Source: Clostridiales bacterium (GTDB lineage: Bacteria > Bacillota > Clostridia > Christensenellales > Aristaeellaceae). From it: a DNA stretch of 64,000 bases. The translations under genes and the position numbers were made by a program. The number at the start of each line of letters is the position of its first letter. The stretch's first letter is position 1. The notes below the pieces were generated by a model, which was given only the letters and a program-made list of their open reading frames with translations, did no database searches and was not told the origin of the DNA. Below are positions 1-12,071 of this stretch, one piece after another. Where the stretch lies: the NCBI GenBank assembly GCA_012523405.1, contig JAAYIN010000083.1, forward strand, positions 1-64,000. The letters are read 5' to 3'.

Positions 1-1893
1 AAAATCATCACTTCTCATGGCGGTTGGAAATCATCATTAACGGCAATGTTCGGAAGTTCGGCGTTCTGGGGTATCGCTGCTGGTGCTGGCATTTTGCTTT
101 TGATTTCATATTTGGACAGTATACCCACCAAACTTGAAAACATCATAACAAGTGCCGCAAGCATTCCATTAACGTTTGATCAGGAAAGCGTAACCCAAGC
201 ACTTGATCAGATTGCACAAGTTCAATCAGGACTTGACTTATTGAATGGAAATGAACAAACCCAAGAAGCGGCGAATGCAAGTCAAGCGGTGAAAATGGGT
301 TACGGCACACAAAACATGTACAATAGTGCGCTTGCCTATGAAAGCGCTTCTGTAAATGCAGAAATAGAAAAAATCATCACAGATTATTCATCACTAATTC
401 ATGAAGCTGAAATTGAGATTTCAAGAGCCGCCACGGATGCGGAACGTAACACTTGGTTGACTACTGCCCAAAGTCTTGAAGGTCAAATGAATTCTGAAGT
501 TTCCGCTGCGCGTGAAAGGTATTCAACCACGATTAGTGAGTTATTCAATGGTATGGCTGCACAATTTCCCGAAAGTGCCGCCGCCCTAGAAAAAGCCGCT
601 AAACAGTATGATTTCATGAGCTTGATGCAAAATGTATCGAACTTCGAGTGGGGCGATAATGATGCGGCTGATACAATAGCATGGAATAACATGATGAAGA
701 ACATGTATGGCAAGGCGTTTGATCTGGGTTATATGAGTGATTCGGGTTTAACGTTAGAGCAGGTAGAAGGTCAAATAGACTTTGGTATGATGCCAAACGC
801 TGGCTGGATAATGGATTTTGAAACTGCGGTATCAGATGATTTAAAAACATCGGTACAGAATCTTTCAGATAACCCAATGCTTTCAACGTTACTTCAAACT
901 ATTCTACAATCCGACACTGTAACGGAAAATCTCGATCTGACCGCTGTTCAAGGTGCGCTTGATGGTATGGTTGGAACGTTGGACTTTGCCCAAGCTGCAC
1001 AGAAAGCCGTTGAAAGCGGTGAACCTGCTAAATTTGGTGAATATCTAGTCCTAGGTTTAGCGGATGGCGTAACAAACAACGCAGGTTTAATTGAACCAAG
1101 TTTTGCATCGGTTCGGGATGCTGCTCTTGCTGCTCTAGCTTCCGCATTCATGATGCACAGTCCATCACAACTGATGGCCGAACAGGGAATATACATTCCT
1201 GAAGGTCTTGCGCTTGGTATTTTAAATGGTGTTCCCGTTGTTTCCGCTGCGATCATGTCTTTGGGTACAGTTGTGGTGGGTAATATTGTTACTATATCAA
1301 ATCAAGCGGTTCAAAATGCATCGTCCATTCTTAGTTATTCCCAAGGTCATTCAATCGGAAGTCAAATCGCTGCTGGTATGGCTGGCGGTATTCGAAGTGG
1401 TTCGGGTGCGGTTGCTGCTGCTGCTCGTGCATTGGCTGCTTCAGCCGTTGCCGCAACTAGAAGTTCACTAGGGATTCATTCGCCGTCAACGGTGTATTAT
1501 GACTTGGCCACCATGACTGGCAAAGGCTACATCAACGGACAATATGACATGAGGGGCGAAATTGAAAAGTCAACCTATGGTATGTTATCCGTTGCCAATA
1601 GTGCCATGAATGAAGGCGTTTGGTCTAATATCGGCATGTTTGCAGACCTTGAAAATCAAAAGTTCCTTGCGGATGATAAAACAAAAGTCAAAATATCCGA
1701 TACAGACATTAAAAAGATTCGTGATCTTGCGGAACGCGAATCAATTAATCAATATACTACGGCAGAACTTCACATTGATTTTACTGCAAATAATAAAATT
1801 GATTCGAATCTTGATCTTGATGGTGTCGTTACTTATCTTCAAGACAAGGTTGCAGAACGCCTTGAAATGGTTGCGGAAGGAGTGTATGAGTAA
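1..1893 (+). CDS. Phage tail tape measure protein, C-terminal part (5' end outside window)
   Basis: The reading frame is open to base 1, so this is the 3' part (630 codons) of a longer gene; the ATG at 46 is internal. Tape measure proteins set tail length and are packed inside the tail tube. The visible part has a hydrophobic stretch near its start (FWGIAAGAGILLLISYL) and long helical, Gln/Asn/Ala-rich segments. It also carries two copies of the HSPS-x-G-x-GL/GY motif (around MHSPSQL and IHSPSTV) that recurs in the C-terminal half of Gram-positive tape measures. It occupies the XkdO position directly before the XkdP-like gene and shares one base with it (TAATG). The family call is firm from motif and context; the exact subfamily is not. 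Confidence 0.85.
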   Translation, partial: KIITSHGGWKSSLTAMFGSSAFWGIAAGAGILLLISYLDSIPTKLENIITSAASIPLTFDQESVTQALDQIAQVQSGLDLLNGNEQTQEAANASQAVKMGYGTQNMYNSALAYESASVNAEIEKIITDYSSLIHEAEIEISRAATDAERNTWLTTAQSLEGQMNSEVSAARERYSTTISELFNGMAAQFPESAAALEKAAKQYDFMSLMQNVSNFEWGDNDAADTIAWNNMMKNMYGKAFDLGYMSDSGLTLEQVEGQIDFGMMPNAGWIMDFETAVSDDLKTSVQNLSDNPMLSTLLQTILQSDTVTENLDLTAVQGALDGMVGTLDFAQAAQKAVESGEPAKFGEYLVLGLADGVTNNAGLIEPSFASVRDAALAALASAFMMHSPSQLMAEQGIYIPEGLALGILNGVPVVSAAIMSLGTVVVGNIVTISNQAVQNASSILSYSQGHSIGSQIAAGMAGGIRSGSGAVAAAARALAASAVAATRSSLGIHSPSTVYYDLATMTGKGYINGQYDMRGEIEKSTYGMLSVANSAMNEGVWSNIGMFADLENQKFLADDKTKVKISDTDIKKIRDLAERESINQYTTAELHIDFTANNKIDSNLDLDGVVTYLQDKVAERLEMVAEGVYE

Positions 1894-4595: not shown

Positions 4596-5662
4596 TGTTT
4601 GAAGCAATGACTTATGATAATCTCATGGCGAGAATGCTTGATCGAATTCCTGATGATATGGATAAGCGCGAAGGTTCTGTCATTTGGGATGCACTTTCAC
4701 CCGCTGCGCTTGAACTCGAATTGGCATATATCAGCTTGGAATATACCCTGCTTGAAGGGTTTGCCGATACGCAAGAACGGGAATATCTAGTTCGGCGCTG
4801 CGCTGAACGTGGGCTTGTCCCCTACGAAGCCACCAATGCTATTTTAAAAGGAGTTTTCACCCCATCGAATGTGGAAGTATTGGGAAAGCGATTTAGTTTA
4901 GATAAATTAAACTATACTGTTCTTTCACCCATCGAAGGTGAACCGGGAGCATATCAAATTCAATGTGAAAACTCTGGCATTGAAGGCGGTCAATATATGG
5001 GGAGTTTAGTTCCCATTGAATATGTTGACAATCTTGAAACCGCCAATGCAGTTGAAGTTCTAATTCCCGGTGAGGATGAAGAAGAAACTGAAGCATTACG
5101 CGAACGATACTTCAGCAATTTCCGAAATAAAAGCTATGGTGGAAATGTTCATGATTATCTTGAAAAAACCAACGCTATTGAAGGCGTTGGCGCAACCAAG
5201 GTTATTCCCATATGGGCTGGCGCTGGGACAGTCAAATTAACTATTCTCAATAGTGATTTTGATAAAGCATCGGCGTTGTTAATTGGGAATGTTCAAGACG
5301 AAATTGATCCCCTTCAGGATGGAAAAGGAAGTGGAATTGCCCCCATAGGACATATTGTCACCGTTGACACGGTAACAGAAGAAAAGATAAACGTAAGCAC
5401 TAGCATTGAATGTGACGTTGGTTACGCTTGGCAAAACGTAGAAAATATGATCGTTCAAGTGATTTCTGAATATCTTTTGGAACTTCGGAAGAATTGGGGT
5501 AATGTTCAAAGTTCGGTCGTTCGTATAGCACAAATCGAAACCCGACTGTTAAATATTCAAGGAATCGTTGATGTTTGGCGAACAAGCATTAATGGAAAAA
5601 CTGAAAATCTCACGCTTGATTCGGCTTCAATCCCAATTATGGGGGTGGTGTCGAATGAATAG
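4595..5662 (+). CDS. Baseplate J-like wedge protein (XkdT-like)
   Basis: 355 residues. The start (MLDRIPDDMDKREGSVIWDA) and central VLIPGEDEEETEALRERYF with NKSYGGNVHDY are hallmark stretches of the baseplate J/gp47-like family (XkdT in PBSX). Length is typical. The protein forms the baseplate wedge together with the XkdU-like product. It starts inside the previous stop codon (TAATG) and ends after the next start, whose ATG is at 5655. This is one of the most secure identifications in the tail module. Confidence 0.9.
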   Translation: MFEAMTYDNLMARMLDRIPDDMDKREGSVIWDALSPAALELELAYISLEYTLLEGFADTQEREYLVRRCAERGLVPYEATNAILKGVFTPSNVEVLGKRFSLDKLNYTVLSPIEGEPGAYQIQCENSGIEGGQYMGSLVPIEYVDNLETANAVEVLIPGEDEEETEALRERYFSNFRNKSYGGNVHDYLEKTNAIEGVGATKVIPIWAGAGTVKLTILNSDFDKASALLIGNVQDEIDPLQDGKGSGIAPIGHIVTVDTVTEEKINVSTSIECDVGYAWQNVENMIVQVISEYLLELRKNWGNVQSSVVRIAQIETRLLNIQGIVDVWRTSINGKTENLTLDSASIPIMGVVSNE

Positions 5663-6443
5663 AACAATTGATTTATGGCTTTTCCTACCTCCGTACTTGA
5701 AGAATTTTCACGAAATGTGCGCATTGCTTGCGGGTGAAAATCCAGAATTTCAAATGCTGGCTGATGAATGTACAAAGCTTATTGATGAACTGTTCATTCA
5801 AACCGCTTCAGAAGTTGGACTTTCCAAATTTGAAAAAGTTCTTGGCATTTCACACGTTCCCGGTGAAGCACTCGATGAACGAAGAAGCGCGATTATGACC
5901 CGTTGGAATGATGTTTCACCATATACAATGACTACATTGAAAAATCGCATAATTGCTATTCAAGGAAACGATCAAATTGAAGTCTATATGCTTCCCGGTC
6001 GCCCATATGAAATAGCTATTGTCACTCACCTTGAAAAAGCGGGTCAAGTTGAAAACTTGGATTATGTGCTTCAATCAATGATTCCGTGCAATTTAATAGT
6101 ACATTCCGCGAACATGATTCAGGGTAAAAGTACGGTCAGAATGTTCTATTCGATCGGCGCTGGTATCACGGGAAATTTTTTATTGACGAATGATTTAAAT
6201 GAGATTGTAAAAAGTGAAATTTCGCAAGGTGTTGCATTTGGTCAAAACATCACTAATACGCTGTTTTTGACTAATGATCTAGTTGAAATTGTAAAAGGTG
6301 CAATTCCGCAAGGGGTTGCATTCAGTCAAAATATCACTGACACGTTGTTTTTGACAAACGATTTAATTGAATCATCTACTGTTGCAATGACGGAATACAT
6401 CGGAACGGTGAACGTCATCACCAACATTATAGAAATCAACTGA
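5655..6443 (+). CDS. DUF2313 (XkdU/YmfQ-like) baseplate protein with C-terminal 28-residue repeats
   Basis: 262 residues from the ATG at 5655, which follows a GGGGGTGGTG ribosome site inside the end of the baseplate J gene. The N-terminal region (IDLWLFLPPYLKNF; ECTKLIDELFIQTASEVGLSKFEKVLGI, given here as residues about 36-63) is typical of XkdU/DUF2313. The C-terminal third is unusual. A block reading FLTNDL-x-EIVK-x-x-I-x-QGVAF-x-QNIT is present twice in tandem, with a partial third copy, at an exact 84-base period from 6177. The repeats may lengthen the fibre-attachment arm. The following fibre gene starts 15 bases downstream. Confidence 0.82.
   Translation: MNRTIDLWLFLPPYLKNFHEMCALLAGENPEFQMLADECTKLIDELFIQTASEVGLSKFEKVLGISHVPGEALDERRSAIMTRWNDVSPYTMTTLKNRIIAIQGNDQIEVYMLPGRPYEIAIVTHLEKAGQVENLDYVLQSMIPCNLIVHSANMIQGKSTVRMFYSIGAGITGNFLLTNDLNEIVKSEISQGVAFGQNITNTLFLTNDLVEIVKGAIPQGVAFSQNITDTLFLTNDLIESSTVAMTEYIGTVNVITNIIEIN
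6177..6371 (+). repeat. 84-bp in-frame tandem repeat inside the XkdU-like gene
   Basis: Two full units (6177-6260 and 6261-6344) and a truncated third (6345-6371) encode the same FLTNDL...QGVAF...QNIT block. The units differ by scattered substitutions, many synonymous, so the duplication is not fresh. Confidence 0.85.
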
Positions 6444-6458
6444 CGAAAGGGAAATAAT

Positions 6459-8252
6459 ATGGAATTTTCTACATTTGTTATCACTAATAAAGGTCAAGCA
6501 TTAATGGCGAAATTGATGCAGGGGAACGGAACTTGTAATTTTACCGCGATTAAACTATCAGCGCAGGAATACACTGCTGCACAGCTTCCAACGTTGACTT
6601 CGCTTTCCAATACCAAGCAAACAGCGCCAATTACCCGAAAAACAATTGTCAATACTGCTTCAATTCAGATTGAAGGGGCAATTGATAATAAAGCCTTGAC
6701 CGTGGGTTATAACATTCAATCCATTGGTATTTTCGCCAATGATCCTGACACGGGCGAAATCCTTTACGCTGTAGCAAAGGCGACCACGCCCGGTTATATG
6801 CCCCCTTATAATGGTATCACGGTTAGTGGTGGGTATTTCAAGTTTGTAATCACCGTGGGCAACGCGACAAACGTATCAATTACGGTTGACCCTGCTGGTT
6901 ATGCGTCTATTGGTGACGTGCAAAGCCTTCAAACTGAAATCAGCGATTTGAAAGGCTTCGTGGGGTACTCCGATGATGATATATACGGCGTTGAAGTTGA
7001 CTTTTCAAACAGTAAATTTTCTCGTCTTGCCGCCGCAATTGGCCGCAATTCGGGTGAAGGTTTTGACAGTGTTGAACCCTTTGGCGGGCGATATCGCTGT
7101 AATCTCACGGATGCGGGCGAAGAAATCGCGAAATATGGTGACGCTGGTTACTCTGAAACAGGAAAATTAACTCAATCAATCACGATTGGTGAAGCGGAAA
7201 ATGCGAAAACTTACCCTACCGGAACAATTGTTCAAGTCATGGTTCATCAGCCCAAGTTCTATTATAAAGTCGTGCCGTTGAAAACCGACAAAGTTGAAGG
7301 TGGTAAGGGTCATCATTTGCGCAAAGCACGATATTACATATCAGCCGCCCCGAAAACAGGCTTCAAGCTGCATCCCGCCTTCATTCATAACGGTGTAGAA
7401 AAGAATTATGTTTACATGTCGGCATATGAAGGCACTCTGTTTGATACTTCAGCAAATGCTTACATTTTGGACGATGCCCAAGTTGCTGATTTTGCAGCCG
7501 ATAAGTTATGTTCCATTGCAAATGCAAAACCAATAAGCGGCACTACCCAAAGTTTGGTTCGCCGGAATTGTGGTTTGTTGGCTGAAAAACGCGGTAAGGG
7601 CTGGTATCAAGAATATGGTGCTCTGGCGGCGTGTACACAGCTTCTTTTTCTGGTTGAATATGCAAGTTTCAACACTCAAAGCAAAATAGGCAATGGTGTT
7701 ACTGGTAAGCCTTCCATTGAAGAAAATGTGAGTTATTCGGAGAATACGGGCGCAAGCACCCCCCTTGGGAATGCTTCGGGCAGCGTCACCAATGGTAATG
7801 GCTTCAACGTTGTATCGTATCGAGGGGAAGAGAATTTCTGGGGTAACATGTGGAAGTTTGTTGATGGTCTGAATATTCAAGGGTCAGGCATTCACGAGTT
7901 ATATGTTGCCGACCATGGATTCACTGAATCGTCTATAACCGCACCCTATGAAAACGCGGGTATCACGCTTAGCAAGGAAAATGGTTATATTTCAGCAATG
8001 GCGTACAGTGAAAAATTTGACTGGTTATTCTTCCCTTCTGAAACAAATCACGGCGCGAATTCATCCGTTCCAGTGGGCGACTATTTTTATCAGAATAACG
8101 CTGCTGCACCCTTCTTTGTCACCTTTCTGGGCGGGCCTTGGACTGATGGGGGCGATGCGGGCGGTTTCTATTGGGATGTTTCTTATACGCCTTCTACTCG
8201 TAGTCGGAATATCGGCGGCCGCTTGGCGTATGTACCCGGCGTTACAGCTTAA
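6459..8252 (+). CDS. DGR-diversified tail fibre (collar-fibre N-terminus, C-type-lectin-like variable C-terminus)
   Basis: 597 residues. The N-terminus (TNKGQALMAKLMQGN; FTAIKLSAQEY; later VGYNIQSIGIFANDPDTGE) matches the phage tail-collar fibre domain that attaches to the baseplate. The C-terminal half has features of the formylglycine-enzyme/C-type-lectin-like fold used by DGR variable proteins (KGWYQEYGALAACTQLLFLVEYA; GEENFWGNMWKFVDGL). The last about 40 codons lie in the variable repeat. The template would encode FVTFIGRTWNNGSNAGSF; the gene reads FVTFLGGPWTDGGDAGGF, with changes at TR adenines. The protein is predicted to be the receptor-binding tip, with residues such as the changed Asn codons forming the binding surface. 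Ribosome site GAAAGGGAA precedes ATG 6459. Confidence 0.93.
   Translation: MEFSTFVITNKGQALMAKLMQGNGTCNFTAIKLSAQEYTAAQLPTLTSLSNTKQTAPITRKTIVNTASIQIEGAIDNKALTVGYNIQSIGIFANDPDTGEILYAVAKATTPGYMPPYNGITVSGGYFKFVITVGNATNVSITVDPAGYASIGDVQSLQTEISDLKGFVGYSDDDIYGVEVDFSNSKFSRLAAAIGRNSGEGFDSVEPFGGRYRCNLTDAGEEIAKYGDAGYSETGKLTQSITIGEAENAKTYPTGTIVQVMVHQPKFYYKVVPLKTDKVEGGKGHHLRKARYYISAAPKTGFKLHPAFIHNGVEKNYVYMSAYEGTLFDTSANAYILDDAQVADFAADKLCSIANAKPISGTTQSLVRRNCGLLAEKRGKGWYQEYGALAACTQLLFLVEYASFNTQSKIGNGVTGKPSIEENVSYSENTGASTPLGNASGSVTNGNGFNVVSYRGEENFWGNMWKFVDGLNIQGSGIHELYVADHGFTESSITAPYENAGITLSKENGYISAMAYSEKFDWLFFPSETNHGANSSVPVGDYFYQNNAAAPFFVTFLGGPWTDGGDAGGFYWDVSYTPSTRSRNIGGRLAYVPGVTA
8115..8232 (+). repeat. DGR variable repeat (VR) at the 3' end of the fibre gene
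   Basis: Aligned base by base to the template repeat at a constant offset of 211. There are 24 mismatches. In 22 the template has A and VR has G, C or T (for example VR 8127, 8143, 8151, 8181, 8182, 8184, 8197, 8229). Only two (VR 8150 and 8228, G against template T) are not at adenines. Invariant blocks such as TTTCTATTGG and TCGGAATATC flank variable codons. Seventeen amino acids differ from the template-encoded peptide. The GC-rich 3' part (8211-8232) is the likely initiation-of-homing region. Confidence 0.95.
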
Positions 8253-8325
8253 ATAGACTATATGGGCAAGTGGAAAATCCGCTTACTTATGCGGGCGTTC
8301 ACATAACCAAAAATAAAAAACTGCT

Positions 8326-8443
8326 TTTGTCACCTTTATAGGCAGGACTTGGAATAATGGTAGCAATGCAGGCAGTTTCTATTGGAATGTTAATAATACA
8401 CCTTCTAATCGTAATCGGAATATCAGCAGCCACTTAGCTAATG
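8326..8443 (+). ncRNA. DGR template repeat (TR), adenine-rich template RNA
   Basis: Non-coding copy of the fibre 3' end, 73 bases after the fibre stop. It holds 36 adenines in about 118 bases, concentrated in AAT/AGC codons of the fibre frame, so that adenine mutation yields radical amino-acid change without creating stops. This is the signature of mutagenic retrohoming templates. A small CCGC-N8-GCGG stem lies just upstream (about 8279-8294). The RNA is predicted to be transcribed through to the RT gene and reverse-transcribed with adenine-specific errors. Confidence 0.94.
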
Positions 8444-8449
8444 CACGAA

Positions 8450-8485
8450 ATAAACACCCCTGAAAAATTTTTCAGGGGTGTTTAT
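8450..8485. repeat. Perfect 18-bp inverted repeat directly after the TR
   Basis: Left arm 8450-8467 (core AAACACCCCTGAAAAA) and right arm 8468-8485 are perfect reverse complements with no loop. It begins seven bases after the TR. DGRs commonly need a hairpin or cruciform close to the repeat for homing, though in the BPP-1 model it lies by the VR. It could also act as a terminator or processing site that sets the 3' end of the template RNA. Confidence 0.85.
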
Positions 8486-8559
8486 CATAAATGTGGAATT
8501 TACTTGCCCTGCCACTTGGCAAAACATAAAAAAAAAAGAAGAATCGTATTGGTAAGGGG

Positions 8560-8582
8560 AAACCGCTGAAGATTCGGTTTTT
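8560..8582 (+). terminator. Small hairpin with T run between TR and reverse transcriptase gene
   Basis: Stem AAACCG/CGGTTT with a 9-base loop followed by further T residues, 22 bases upstream of the RT start. It is weak for a full terminator and may attenuate RT expression relative to the template RNA. Confidence 0.4.
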
Positions 8583-8604
8583 CGTGCATACGAAGGTATA
8601 CGGT

Positions 8605-9819
8605 ATGAAATTACACGGAGATTTGTTTTCAAAAATTGTATCAGATGATAATTTGAAACTTGCTCACTTTAACGCTAAAAAAGGTAAGGGCTGGTATCAA
8701 GAAGTAAAAAAAGTTAATGAAAACGTTGCAAAGGACACCGAAAACAATTTTGGTGAAATGCTGCAAAAACTTCAACAAGACTTGATTAATCATACTTATC
8801 ACACTTCAAATTATAATACGATACGGCGAAAAGAAGGGAAAAAAGTTCGTGACCTGTATAAACTTCCATATTATCCCGACCGAATCGCACAATGGGCAGT
8901 TATTCAAGTAATCGAACCGATTTTAATACGACACCTGATTTTTGATACATATTCTGCGCTTCCAAATCGAGGAATACATTTAGGACTTGAACGTGTTCAA
9001 CACGTCATGCGTCACGATGTTCCCGGTTGTCAATATTGTCTTAAAATAGACGCAAAGCATTACTATCAATCTATAAACCATGAAATTTTGAAAGATAAGT
9101 TTAGACGATTGTTTAAAGATAATGAACTGCTTTGGTTTATTGATGAAGTGATCGGAAGCGTTGAAACCGCTGATGAAAGCGACAAAGAACGATTGTCCAC
9201 CATTGAAGAATTATCAACTGAAGTGCTATCCAGGTACATTTGGGGGCGAAAAGAAACACCTGAAGAAAGAAAACTTCGATATGAAAATTCCGGTATTGGT
9301 TTACCCATTGGTAATTATTTTTCGCAATATGGCGGCAATTTCTATTTTTCGGAATTTGACCATTTCATGAAAGAAAACATTCGCGTAAAATATTATTTTC
9401 GTTACATGGATGATATCGTGATATTCGGTTCAAACAAAGAATATTTGCACAAACTTTGCTGGCAAATAAACCATTATTTTCAGACGAATTTACGAATCAC
9501 AATGAAAGAAAATTATCAAGTGTTTCCCACTTACGTCCGGGGCGTGGATTATTTAGGGTTTCGTTCTTTTTTGAATTACACCTTATTGAGAAAATCCACC
9601 TGTCAATCTTATAAACACAAAATGCTTTTAATCGCCAAAAAAGTGAAACGAGGGGCAGAAATAAGCTATTCGGATTATTGTTCTTTTAATTCTTACAAAG
9701 GATGGTTGTTACCGTGTGACCATTACCGTCTATATGAAAAATATGGCGTGCCGCTTGAAAAATATGTGGACGCTTATTATGTCAAAAACATTCAATCAAG
9801 AAAGGGTGTTAGCTCATGA
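8605..9819 (+). CDS. DGR reverse transcriptase
   Basis: 404 residues from the ATG at 8605, chosen over an upstream in-frame ATG (8584) because GAAGG lies 8 bases before it. It copies the template RNA and mutates at adenines. Visible RT motifs: KIDAKHYYQSI (about residues 147-157), the catalytic YMDD box (267-270) in FRYMDDIVIFG, and the GLPIGNYFSQ motif (232-241). The SQ ending of that last motif is characteristic of DGR enzymes, where group II introns and retrons usually have QG-x-x-x-SP. There is no maturase or endonuclease domain. The end overlaps the next tail gene (ATGA), so the RT is built into the structural operon. Its 21-base match to the fibre gene at 7593-7613 is noted separately. 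Confidence 0.95.
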   Translation: MKLHGDLFSKIVSDDNLKLAHFNAKKGKGWYQEVKKVNENVAKDTENNFGEMLQKLQQDLINHTYHTSNYNTIRRKEGKKVRDLYKLPYYPDRIAQWAVIQVIEPILIRHLIFDTYSALPNRGIHLGLERVQHVMRHDVPGCQYCLKIDAKHYYQSINHEILKDKFRRLFKDNELLWFIDEVIGSVETADESDKERLSTIEELSTEVLSRYIWGRKETPEERKLRYENSGIGLPIGNYFSQYGGNFYFSEFDHFMKENIRVKYYFRYMDDIVIFGSNKEYLHKLCWQINHYFQTNLRITMKENYQVFPTYVRGVDYLGFRSFLNYTLLRKSTCQSYKHKMLLIAKKVKRGAEISYSDYCSFNSYKGWLLPCDHYRLYEKYGVPLEKYVDAYYVKNIQSRKGVSS

Positions 9820-10085
9820 TTCTACATGGAATCGTACGTGGTACGGAAGTTCCCGAACCTGTAATAGTAGATGAATTCAGCGTATGGGTTTCGGAAAACA
9901 TTCAAGAAGTCGTTGTTCAGGACGAACAGGGGGAAAGATCAGAAATCGAATTTACTTTAACCCAATACGAAAAAGACGAATATATCAAATCACTGATCGA
10001 AGCCAATCAAGAATTCGAATTGGATATTACAAACACACAGTTGGCGCTATGTGACGTTTATGAATTGCTGACCGCTACCGTATAG
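9816..10085 (+). CDS. Small phage tail-region protein, unknown function
   Basis: 89 residues, acidic, with an N-terminal beta segment (GIVRGTEVPEPVIV) and a C-terminal helix (ANQEFELDITNTQLALCDVYELL) likely to be coiled. Proteins of this size and helix pattern occupy the XkdW/XkdX position after fibre genes in Gram-positive phages. It starts in the RT stop codon (ATGA). It is too short and lacks the four-helix composition expected of an Avd accessory protein, so I do not call it one. Confidence 0.6.
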   Translation: MILHGIVRGTEVPEPVIVDEFSVWVSENIQEVVVQDEQGERSEIEFTLTQYEKDEYIKSLIEANQEFELDITNTQLALCDVYELLTATV

Positions 10086-10101: not shown

Positions 10102-10209
10102 GTGCCTAAAATTTATGCAAATTTGATTCGGAAGGGATTGAAAACACTTGAAGATGTTCCTGTTTCGCTACGTGAAACCGTGGCTAAACTTCTGGACGCT
10201 GATATTTGA
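10102..10209 (+). CDS. Very small CD1375-like phage protein
   Basis: 35 residues from GTG at 10102, preceded by AAAAGGGGTG. Translation runs PKIYANLIRKGLKTLEDVP, then SLRETVAKLL, the pattern of the CD1375/XkdX-like microproteins that follow tail-fibre genes. Its relation to the next gene (A-x-LI-KG-K-x-x-DVPE-x-L) shows they are paralogues. Function unknown. Confidence 0.7.
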   Translation: MPKIYANLIRKGLKTLEDVPVSLRETVAKLLDADI

Positions 10210-10860: not shown

Positions 10861-11079
10861 ATGAATATCAATTGGAAACAGAAATTGACTTCCCGCAAAT
10901 TTTGGGCGGCTATCACTGGTTTTATTACCGCTTTGCTCGTAACGTTTGGCGTTGACAACATGACCACGGAACAGGTGGTTGGCGTTGTTACAGCAGCGGC
11001 CACTTTAATTGCATACATCATTGGCGAAGGCATGGTGGATGCTGCAAGGGGGAACGGTGACGAAAGCGGGAATGAGTAA
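10861..11079 (+). CDS. Phage holin
   Basis: 72 residues. A short basic start (NINWKQKLTSRKFW) is followed by one strong membrane helix (AAITGFITALLVTFGV), a short turn, a second helix (VVGVVTAAATLIAYIIGEGMV) and a polar C-terminus. Size, two-helix topology and its overlap with the endolysin start (TAATG at 11077-11081) fit a small phage holin that forms the lesion releasing or activating the endolysin. Confidence 0.85.
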   Translation: MNINWKQKLTSRKFWAAITGFITALLVTFGVDNMTTEQVVGVVTAAATLIAYIIGEGMVDAARGNGDESGNE

Positions 11080-12071
11080 TGTTTAAAGCGTCCGAACTGG
11101 TAGCGTTTGCATCATCTATGATCGGAATGCCCTATTGGTATGGGACTTGTGTATATCGTTGTACAAAAGATTTGCGTCAACGAAAAGCGATTCAATATCC
11201 TTCACATTATGGGGCTTCACGCACGTCAATGTATAATCAGCATATTGCTGCAAAATCAATTTGCATGGATTGTGTGGGCTTGATTAAGGGTTTCTTTTGG
11301 ACGAACGGTGGCGAAGGCGTTGTTGATGCTATCGGCACAAATAACACGTTTTCCAGCAAGTATGGTTCTAACGGTTGCCCGGACAAAGGCGCAAACGGAT
11401 TACTTGATTGGTGTAAATCAAAAAAATGCACATGGGGCAGCATTTCAACCTTGCCCGATGTACCGGGTATCCTTTTGTTTTCTTCTGGACATGTTGGTGT
11501 ATATGTTGGTGACGGTTATGCGGTTGAAGCTCGCGGATTCGCTTACGGTGTGGTAAAAACAAAGATTACAAGTCGATCATGGAAAACGTGGTCATATCTT
11601 CCGGCTACCCTTCTTCAATATGACGGTTCTCAAAGTATTGATATTCCTGAAACACCCGTTGCAGAATACAAGCTAGGCGAAAGAACGTTGGAGAACGTTT
11701 CCCCTTATATGACGGGCGCAGACGTAACAGAACTACAAACTCGCTTGAACGCACTTGGCTTTGAATGCGGTAAAATTGATAGTAAATTTGGCGCAAGCAC
11801 TGAAAAAGGTGTTAGAGCTTTTCAAACGTCAGTAGACATTGACGTTGACGGAAAGTTTGGAAGCGAATCATTCAAAGCATTGGAAACCTTCAACGCTCAA
11901 AGCGACCCCCTCACTTTCACCGAATACACAGTTCAGCGGGGTGACACACTATGGAAGATTGCAAAAAAGCTTCTGGGTAAGGGTGGCAGATATGTTGAAA
12001 TTAAAACTTTGAATGATATGACCTCCGACATGATCAGAACGGGAAAAATTCTGAAAATCCCCAATAAATAG
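11079..12071 (+). CDS. Phage endolysin: NlpC/P60 peptidase + PG-binding + LysM
   Basis: 330 residues, no signal peptide, so export depends on the holin. Residues about 1-170 form an NlpC/P60-type cysteine peptidase with catalytic Cys65 (in MDCVGLIKG), His138 (in SSGHVGVYVGDG) and a polar third residue nearby (VEARG). Residues about 205-270 form a peptidoglycan-binding type 1 domain (VTELQTRLNALGFECG; TEKGVRAFQ; VDGKFGSES). Residues about 284-330 form a LysM domain (YTVQRGDTLWKIAKKLLG to GKILKIP). It should cut stem-peptide bonds in host peptidoglycan at lysis. Having both binding modules on one lysin is a common clostridial phage layout. Confidence 0.92.
   Translation: MFKASELVAFASSMIGMPYWYGTCVYRCTKDLRQRKAIQYPSHYGASRTSMYNQHIAAKSICMDCVGLIKGFFWTNGGEGVVDAIGTNNTFSSKYGSNGCPDKGANGLLDWCKSKKCTWGSISTLPDVPGILLFSSGHVGVYVGDGYAVEARGFAYGVVKTKITSRSWKTWSYLPATLLQYDGSQSIDIPETPVAEYKLGERTLENVSPYMTGADVTELQTRLNALGFECGKIDSKFGASTEKGVRAFQTSVDIDVDGKFGSESFKALETFNAQSDPLTFTEYTVQRGDTLWKIAKKLLGKGGRYVEIKTLNDMTSDMIRTGKILKIPNK

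What the first reader, a model, noticed from the sequence alone, without database searches (positions are those of the whole stretch)
8115..9819. Complete diversity-generating retroelement in a contractile-tail fibre locus
The fibre 3' end and an adjacent non-coding copy align over 118 bases with 24 mismatches, 22 of them at template adenines, and 17 altered residues within a C-type-lectin-like tail. A DGR-type RT (YMDD, and SQ in place of SP) follows in the same operon. The order VR-TR-palindrome-RT, the template in the 3' untranslated part of the target gene, and RT coupled by ATGA to the next tail gene mean the element is wired into late tail expression. Host-range switching of a phage or tailocin is the likely role.
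Basis: partly seen in the sequence, partly recalled or inferred. Interest (0 to 1): 0.9.

Follow-up and report, generated by a model that had tools for sequence, protein, structure and literature searches.

The report
Tail-fibre diversifying retroelement in a prophage
A bacterial virus lodged in this bacterium's genome carries a known kind of mutation machine, a diversity-generating retroelement, whose template rewrites the tip of the virus's tail fibre; the case is clear but of a familiar type.

Summary
The reverse transcriptase (RT) that follows has solved DGR RTs as its closest structures. In an adenine-blind repeat search of the 41 nearer loci, 38 gave a pair, and in 38 of 38 at least 75% of mismatches faced adenines of the RT-proximal copy (918 of 964). 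Three pairs of relatives with identical templates have VRs differing at 19, 19 and 15 sites, 19, 19 and 14 of them template adenines. It is a diversity-generating retroelement: a new member of a known kind. Additions: the RT probably starts at 8605; the TR-RT gap holds Rfam's RT-17 RNA, found there in 48 of 50 relatives, 29 above its cut-off; the ATGA-coupled next gene also occurs in loci without any RT. Not shown: C-type-lectin fold, a sheath gene in this genome, an accessory protein, present activity.

The parts
1..1893 (+). 3' part of tail tape-measure protein, cut by the contig end
   Evidence: phrog_1204, 1686, 4372 tail/tape measure; window base 1 is base 1 of contig C55
4595..5662 (+). 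baseplate J-like protein
   Evidence: Pfam PF04865 E 8.9e-47; phrog_6
5568..6443 (+). Mu Gp48-like tail protein (open frame; true start probably further in)
   Evidence: Pfam PF10076 E 9.4e-20
6459..8252 (+). DGR target: tail-fibre protein, 597 aa
   Evidence: phrog_5302 tail protein E 3.4e-148; PF12571 Phage_tail_fib N-terminus E 7.9e-07
8115..8235 (+). variable repeat (VR), 3' end of the fibre gene
8326..8446 (+). template repeat (TR), non-coding, 73 bases between fibre stop and TR
8450..8485 (+). perfect 36-base palindrome directly after TR; RNA hairpin z -6.1; stem sequence differs among relatives
8505..8593 (+). RT-17 RNA (RF03020), read here as the spacer (Sp) domain of the template RNA
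   Evidence: 46.5 bits, cut-off 40.4; placement in relatives
8605..9819 (+). DGR reverse transcriptase, 404 aa from ATG 8605 (GTG 8584 is the mechanical ORF start)
   Evidence: Pfam RVT_1 7.4e-12, phrog_1423 1.1e-101, PDB 8ub7, start
9816..10085 (+). small tail-operon gene, 89 aa, ATGA overlap with RT; phrog_18126, function unknown; context, not part of the DGR
10102..10209 (+). small phage gene (phrog_1382; the name XkdX-like is recalled, from no call); context
11079..12071 (+). endolysin-like gene, last phage-like gene here; context
   Evidence: phrog_1493 endolysin E 2.8e-16

Best explanation
This is a diversity-generating retroelement of a temperate phage, probably with a contractile tail, integrated as a prophage. 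The tail-gene transcript carries, after the fibre stop codon, the TR, a hairpin and the RT-17 spacer RNA (inferred from gene order). The RT binds the spacer, starts cDNA synthesis at the 3' end of TR and misreads template adenines (inferred from BPP-1). The mutated cDNA replaces the VR; 17 residues at the fibre tip differ from the template here, and 24 template codons hold an adenine, while TR is kept. Shown: anatomy, adenine-directed divergence, RT kinship, and the same pattern in relatives that share a template. Inferred: cDNA priming, lack of a need for Avd, retrohoming and receptor switching.
For: TR/VR statistics. Identical-template pairs: L010/L011 19 of 19, L015/L016 19 of 19, L020/L024 14 of 15 VR differences at template A, in stretches 97.2, 98.4 and 95.6% identical. 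Adenine-blind repeat search of the 41 nearer loci: 38 give a pair (2 too short, 1 a TR-less fusion), 38 of 38 with at least 75% of mismatches at A of the RT-proximal copy; 918 of 964 mismatches, against 5 at A of the other copy (some loci are near-duplicates). RT: profile search best 8ub7 (DGR RT) E 9e-41, next group II 1.3e-18; AF2 model pLDDT 88, Foldseek top four all DGR RT; tree. Target: tail fibre. RT-17 RNA in the TR-RT gap. A related 48-kb contig with integrase, terminase, portal, scaffold, tape measure and sheath carries the same cassette.
Against: No reads, so present activity in this genome is not shown; L024/L025 (RT split between frames) and L051 (TR lost) show that such elements decay. 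In the 54 farther loci (L057-L110) the blind search showed the bias in only 20 of 52 with a pair (less), which I put down to two targets per locus. No Avd-size ORF between fibre and RT. No sheath hit in the held assembly. Target fold not obtained. NCBIfam names the RT only below its cut-offs, best group II.
Confidence: 0.96

Rival explanations
1. A decayed or silent DGR: the anatomy is real but the prophage is a remnant and the cassette no longer works here.
For: Contig begins inside the tape measure; no sheath and no PF20441 terminase hit in the genome; related cassettes with a split RT or lost TR exist.
Against: RT is one open frame of 404 aa with YMDD and GNYFSQ; no stop is reachable from the TR codons; a short contig, C13, carries terminase and portal genes, so head genes exist in the assembly.
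Confidence: 0.25
2. A tailocin (phage-tail-like bacteriocin) whose killing spectrum is diversified, rather than a phage.
For: The phage-like genes that I identified on this contig are tail and lysis genes; no sheath hit in the genome.
Against: The phage part is cut by the contig end; the relative L014/G021 with the same cassette has integrase, terminase, portal and scaffold; terminase and portal genes sit on contig C13, kinship to this prophage unproven.
Confidence: 0.1
3. Ordinary repeat plus an unrelated RT (group II intron, retron or defence RT) placed by chance.
For: Best NCBIfam match is group II RT, under its cut-off.
Against: p 1.8e-12 for adenine bias, 38 of 38 pairs in nearer relatives with the same bias, RT nearest to DGR RTs.
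Confidence: 0.01

Closest known systems
Bordetella phage BPP-1 DGR (mtd-avd-TR-brt)
   Same: VR at the 3' end of a tail receptor-binding gene, TR upstream of the RT on the same strand, spacer of similar length (144 bases in BPP-1 by the coordinates; 158 here from TR end to ATG 8605), a Rfam RNA filling the spacer, an endolysin gene downstream.
   Different: No avd-size gene between target and TR; the RNA family is RT-17, not Phage_DGR (RF03022); the strong hairpin follows TR here, whereas in BPP-1 one follows VR; RT 404 aa against 328.
Viral DGR clades 1, 4 and 6 of the global survey (PMC8144416, passages seen)
   Same: Virus-borne, tail-protein target, adenine bias; those clades' phages are predicted to infect Firmicutes, Bacteroidetes or Proteobacteria of the gut, and most of my nearer genome relatives are titled as Bacillota groups.
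Faecalibacterium prophage DGRs (PMC11792537, passages seen)
   Same: Temperate Bacillota phages with DGRs; the abstract reports read variation showing activity in two of them.
   Different: Targets named there include DUF6273, Ig-like and Mtd-like proteins; Pfam called only a tail-fibre N-terminus here.
Rfam RT-17 (RF03020) and RT-14 (RF02921) RNAs
   Same: RT-17 above its cut-off at 8505-8593; RT-14 below its cut-off over 8446-8584.
   Different: The output names RT-17 as an sRNA and gives no function; I read it as the DGR spacer.

Membership tests
Diversity-generating retroelement | TR/VR pair with mismatches at template adenines | tested here: met
   22 of 25 mismatches at TR A, none at VR A; relatives
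Diversity-generating retroelement | VR inside, usually at the 3' end of, a protein-coding target; TR non-coding | tested here: met
   14 bases between VR and the fibre stop codon; no ORF of 45 aa or more covers TR, one of 64 aa on the other strand touches its last 9 bases
Diversity-generating retroelement | RT of the DGR clade (YMDD, SQ in motif 4) | tested here: met
Diversity-generating retroelement | VR diversified in nature while TR is kept | tested here: met
   met in three identical-template pairs of relatives; not testable for the window's own strain
Diversity-generating retroelement | structured spacer RNA between TR and RT | tested here: met
   RF03020 46.5 bits; 48 of 50 relatives, 29 above cut-off
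BPP-1-type DGR | accessory protein Avd (or HRDC, MSL) | tested here: inconclusive
   no ORF of that size between fibre and RT; PF05635 search of 46 records, the window's genome not among them, missed the BPP-1 control; 14 of 46 matched, and in the 12 of these where I could compare contigs no match lay on the DGR's contig; HRDC and MSL not tested
BPP-1-type DGR | hairpin/cruciform directly after VR | tested here: not met
   no strong hairpin starting within 30 bases of VR here, and 1 of 37 loci; the BPP-1 hairpin is seen by folding
Target with C-type-lectin fold | CLec fold around VR | tested here: inconclusive
   AF2 pLDDT under 50 over 384-588; no PDB profile hit at E 1
Contractile-tail (myo-type) phage | tail sheath gene | tested here: inconclusive
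   not found in G000; found in 2 of 16 related viral records, among them G021 E 8e-29
Group II intron or retron RT | RT nearer to those than to DGR RTs | tested here: not met
   NCBIfam scores below cut-offs; the tree's outgroup RTs were not typed

The most novel reading that the evidence does not exclude
In this phage DGR clade the RT-17 RNA is the spacer domain of the template RNA, and the recognition hairpin has moved from the target (after VR, as in BPP-1) to the template (after TR), so that an Avd-less RT is guided by RNA structure alone, and the cassette TR-hairpin-RT-17-RT moves as a unit into and out of fibre loci.
Probability: 0.3. Interest if true: 0.5.

Novelty: new member of a known kind. 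Interest (0 to 1): 0.3.

Why it matters
The locus itself is one more phage DGR, a type already surveyed across thousands of genomes and metagenomes (title of PMC6642488). Two by-products are of use: a position-based function for the Rfam RT-17 RNA (DGR spacer), with a testable contrast to BPP-1 in where the hairpin sits and in the lack of a recognised Avd; and phage fibre loci with and without the TR-RT cassette, which mark the cassette's boundaries.

Tried and rejected
The 89-aa gene at 9816-10085 looked like a new DGR accessory gene: a homologue follows the RT in 37 of 42 loci, and a first count gave an RT in 80 of 80 viral loci found with it. That count was wrong: one query row (from L051) is a fibre-RT fusion ORF and hit fibres. 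With profile HMMs, 98 of 128 locus entries (the best 80 each, overlaps merged by locus id; some entries share a contig) have an RT adjacent and 30 have none in the fetched stretch (4 of the 30 have under 1 kb upstream). In the other 26 and two loci found by the fibre (L326, L328), the fibre stop is followed by this gene after 3-98 bases. So it is a tail gene. Among 80 fibre-seeded loci, the 55 with 2.2 kb or more downstream split: RT and gene 50, RT only 2, gene only 2, neither 1. It showed no similarity to BPP-1 Avd or Bbp4. In L032/L033 it is fused to the RT, which I take as a lost stop codon.

The first RT tree used wrong frames for several outgroup rows and was replaced. That tree has 38 of the 80 genome loci selected (37 entered, L053 skipped), 11 viral RTs, the window, BPP-1 and 8 other RTs; of 19 RT loci I tried 14 and dropped 6 for want of a usable frame. 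It still holds the L051 fusion row; outgroup branches are long and their types unknown (one search failed).

The adenine-aware scan found pairs in 14 of 16 viral and 73 of 80 genome loci; it selects for the bias (1731 of 1762 mismatches), so I rest on the blind search. The blind search on all 95 loci gave 90 pairs, of which 58 showed the bias; the 32 others all lie in L057-L110, and 30 of the 32 show two or more VR entries, so I think that the best repeat there joins two targets. I limited to the 41 nearer loci after seeing this.

PF05635 as Avd detector failed its BPP-1 control. PF20441 gave no terminase in the genome although C13 carries one by PHROGs, so that test is insensitive here. Target fold: failed. 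The 21-base repeat shared by fibre (7593-7613) and RT (8683-8703) is real, in motifs that resemble each other in relatives; unexplained.
Full report
Observation. The finding is exact. No mismatch faces a VR adenine, so the direction is unambiguous. 17 residues change. No stop can arise by A>N from any of the 24 A-containing template codons. The held genome (3.56 Mb, 130 contigs) shows no third copy of the repeat and no second relative of this RT at E 0.01.

Anatomy. The order is fibre gene with VR, stop, 73 bases, TR, perfect palindrome 8450-8485, RT-17 RNA 8505-8593, RT, small tail gene, lysis gene. The RT start is probably ATG 8605: it aligns with an MK start in 13 relatives, starts chosen by me, and 5 of the 13 have no earlier start codon in the frame. 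GTG 8584 lies inside the RT-17 match. No ORF that could be avd lies between fibre and RT. The RT is preceded by baseplate J, Gp48 and tape-measure genes; the window starts at the contig end, inside the tape measure. From about 12.2 kb on the ORFs look bacterial to me.

Relatives. The RT finds 16 viral contigs and, as an alignment, 222 genome stretches, of which the best 80 were kept. In a repeat search that knows nothing about adenines, the 41 nearer loci (window, 14 viral, 26 genome loci; L024/L025 and a few others are near-duplicates) gave 38 pairs; all 38 have at least 75% of mismatches at adenines of the RT-proximal copy, 918 of 964 in sum, where adenines make up 1423 of 4510 positions; 5 mismatches face adenines of the other copy. 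Two loci were too short, and one, L051, has its fibre fused to the RT with TR gone. In the 54 farther loci the same search gave 52 pairs, 20 with the bias (less); 30 of the 32 without it show two or more VR entries in the adenine-aware scan, so I read their best repeat as target against target. The limit between nearer and farther was set. Three pairs of relatives with identical TR differ in VR at 19, 19 and 15 places, of which 19, 19 and 14 face TR adenines. No relative of the RT at E 1e-20 was found in the 16 other genomes of the genus.

RT identity. A profile of 14 RTs matches the solved DGR RT 8ub7 at 9e-41 and group II RTs from 1.3e-18 (that 8ub7 is BPP-1's enzyme is recalled, its 328 residues equal those of Brt). 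The AF2 model (pLDDT 88) has DGR RT structures as the top four Foldseek hits, then group II, with DRTs and retrons lower. In a tree of 58 RTs, the DGR rows, BPP-1 and two YMDD/SQ RTs from related genomes are separated from six other, untyped RTs with SH-aLRT 95; the window sits in an 8-row clade with support 100 (quick method, long outgroup branches).

Spacer RNA. Rfam's RT-17 matches 8505-8593 above its cut-off. In 50 relatives, matches up to E 1 were listed for 49 records, 30 above the cut-off; the 14 control genomes gave 4 with weak matches and none above the cut-off. Mapped by coordinate and strand (contig numbers of the genome records were not matched to names), 48 of 50 have a match ending -60 to 150 bases from the RT match start, 29 above the cut-off; the misses are L051 (TR-less) and L106. 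A search of 398 genomes of the phylum, blind to RT, gave two hits at 1e-4: the window, and G277 at 35.9 bits, under the cut-off; G277 has a DGR-type RT just downstream and a repeat pair with 15 of 17 mismatches at adenines of the RT-proximal copy. In BPP-1 the same gap is filled by Rfam's Phage_DGR RNA, 104.7 bits. PMC12875486 (passages) says that the BPP-1 spacer folds, recruits bRT-Avd and primes cDNA. I therefore read RT-17 as the spacer of this clade. No held paper contains 'RT-17 RNA', 'RT-17 motif', RF03020 or RF03022, and none holds three of the terms RT-17, RT-14, RT-11, Rfam, diversity-generating; the paper that I recall as defining these RNAs is not held, so I make no priority claim.

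Hairpin. By a home-made score against 30 shuffles, a strong hairpin (z above 3) starts within 30 bases after TR in 19 of 37 loci and after VR in 1 of 37; mean z 3.76 and -0.01. Stem sequences differ among loci. In BPP-1 a hairpin follows VR, as folding shows and PMC3240598 reports (passages). L014, L015, L016 and L018 have, by eye, terminator-like hairpins further on between fibre and TR (sequences; L018's is the one VR case), so target-side hairpins are not absent everywhere. 18 of 37 loci lack a strong TR-side hairpin, so it is not universal.

Cassette boundaries. Of 128 viral locus entries with a homologue of the downstream gene, 98 have the RT next to it and 30 none. In 28 RT-less loci the fibre homologue is followed by that gene after 3-98 bases. 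TR, spacer and RT thus behave as a unit between two tail genes. I did not check whether those phages have a DGR elsewhere.

Phage or tailocin. The 48-kb relative G021 has integrase, terminase subunits, portal, scaffold, tape measure and sheath, so the cassette's lineage includes temperate contractile-tail phages. The window's genome gave no sheath hit; a 4.8-kb contig, C13, carries terminase and portal genes that may or may not belong to this prophage (TerL 32% identical to that of G021).

Verdict. A DGR by the features that define one and that I could test, with an unrecognised or absent accessory protein and a target fold that stayed unsolved. Papers were seen as passages or one section, otherwise as search listings. 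Interest is modest because the kind is well known.

Noticed in passing
window 7593-7613 and 8683-8703: A 21-base exact repeat between the fibre gene and the RT gene, encoding GKGWYQE in both; aligned relatives have mostly G[AST]GW.Q in the fibre and GKGWY.. in the RT, so a short gene conversion or chance convergence of similar motifs is possible.
   Followed up: partly
L051 about 4600-6960: Fibre gene fused in frame to the RT, with TR and spacer missing: a natural deletion derivative of the cassette.
   Followed up: partly
L032 and L033, 6001-7371: RT and the downstream tail gene form one open frame.
   Followed up: partly
L024 and L025, RT from 5028: RT gene is split between frames, while the near relative L020 is open.
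   Followed up: no
L113 (G000 contig C13, 4815 bases): Contig with terminase and portal genes in the same genome; may be part of this prophage or of another one.
   Followed up: partly
L115 (G000 contig C42): A second reverse transcriptase (YADD motif) in the same genome; type not determined.
   Followed up: no
G054 contig C163, 3730-4358 minus strand: A weak PF05635 (Avd-type) match lies about 230 bases before a weak RT-17 match on the same strand, which may be another DGR that does have Avd.
   Followed up: no
L057-L110: Many of these farther DGR loci show two or more VR entries served by one TR.
   Followed up: no
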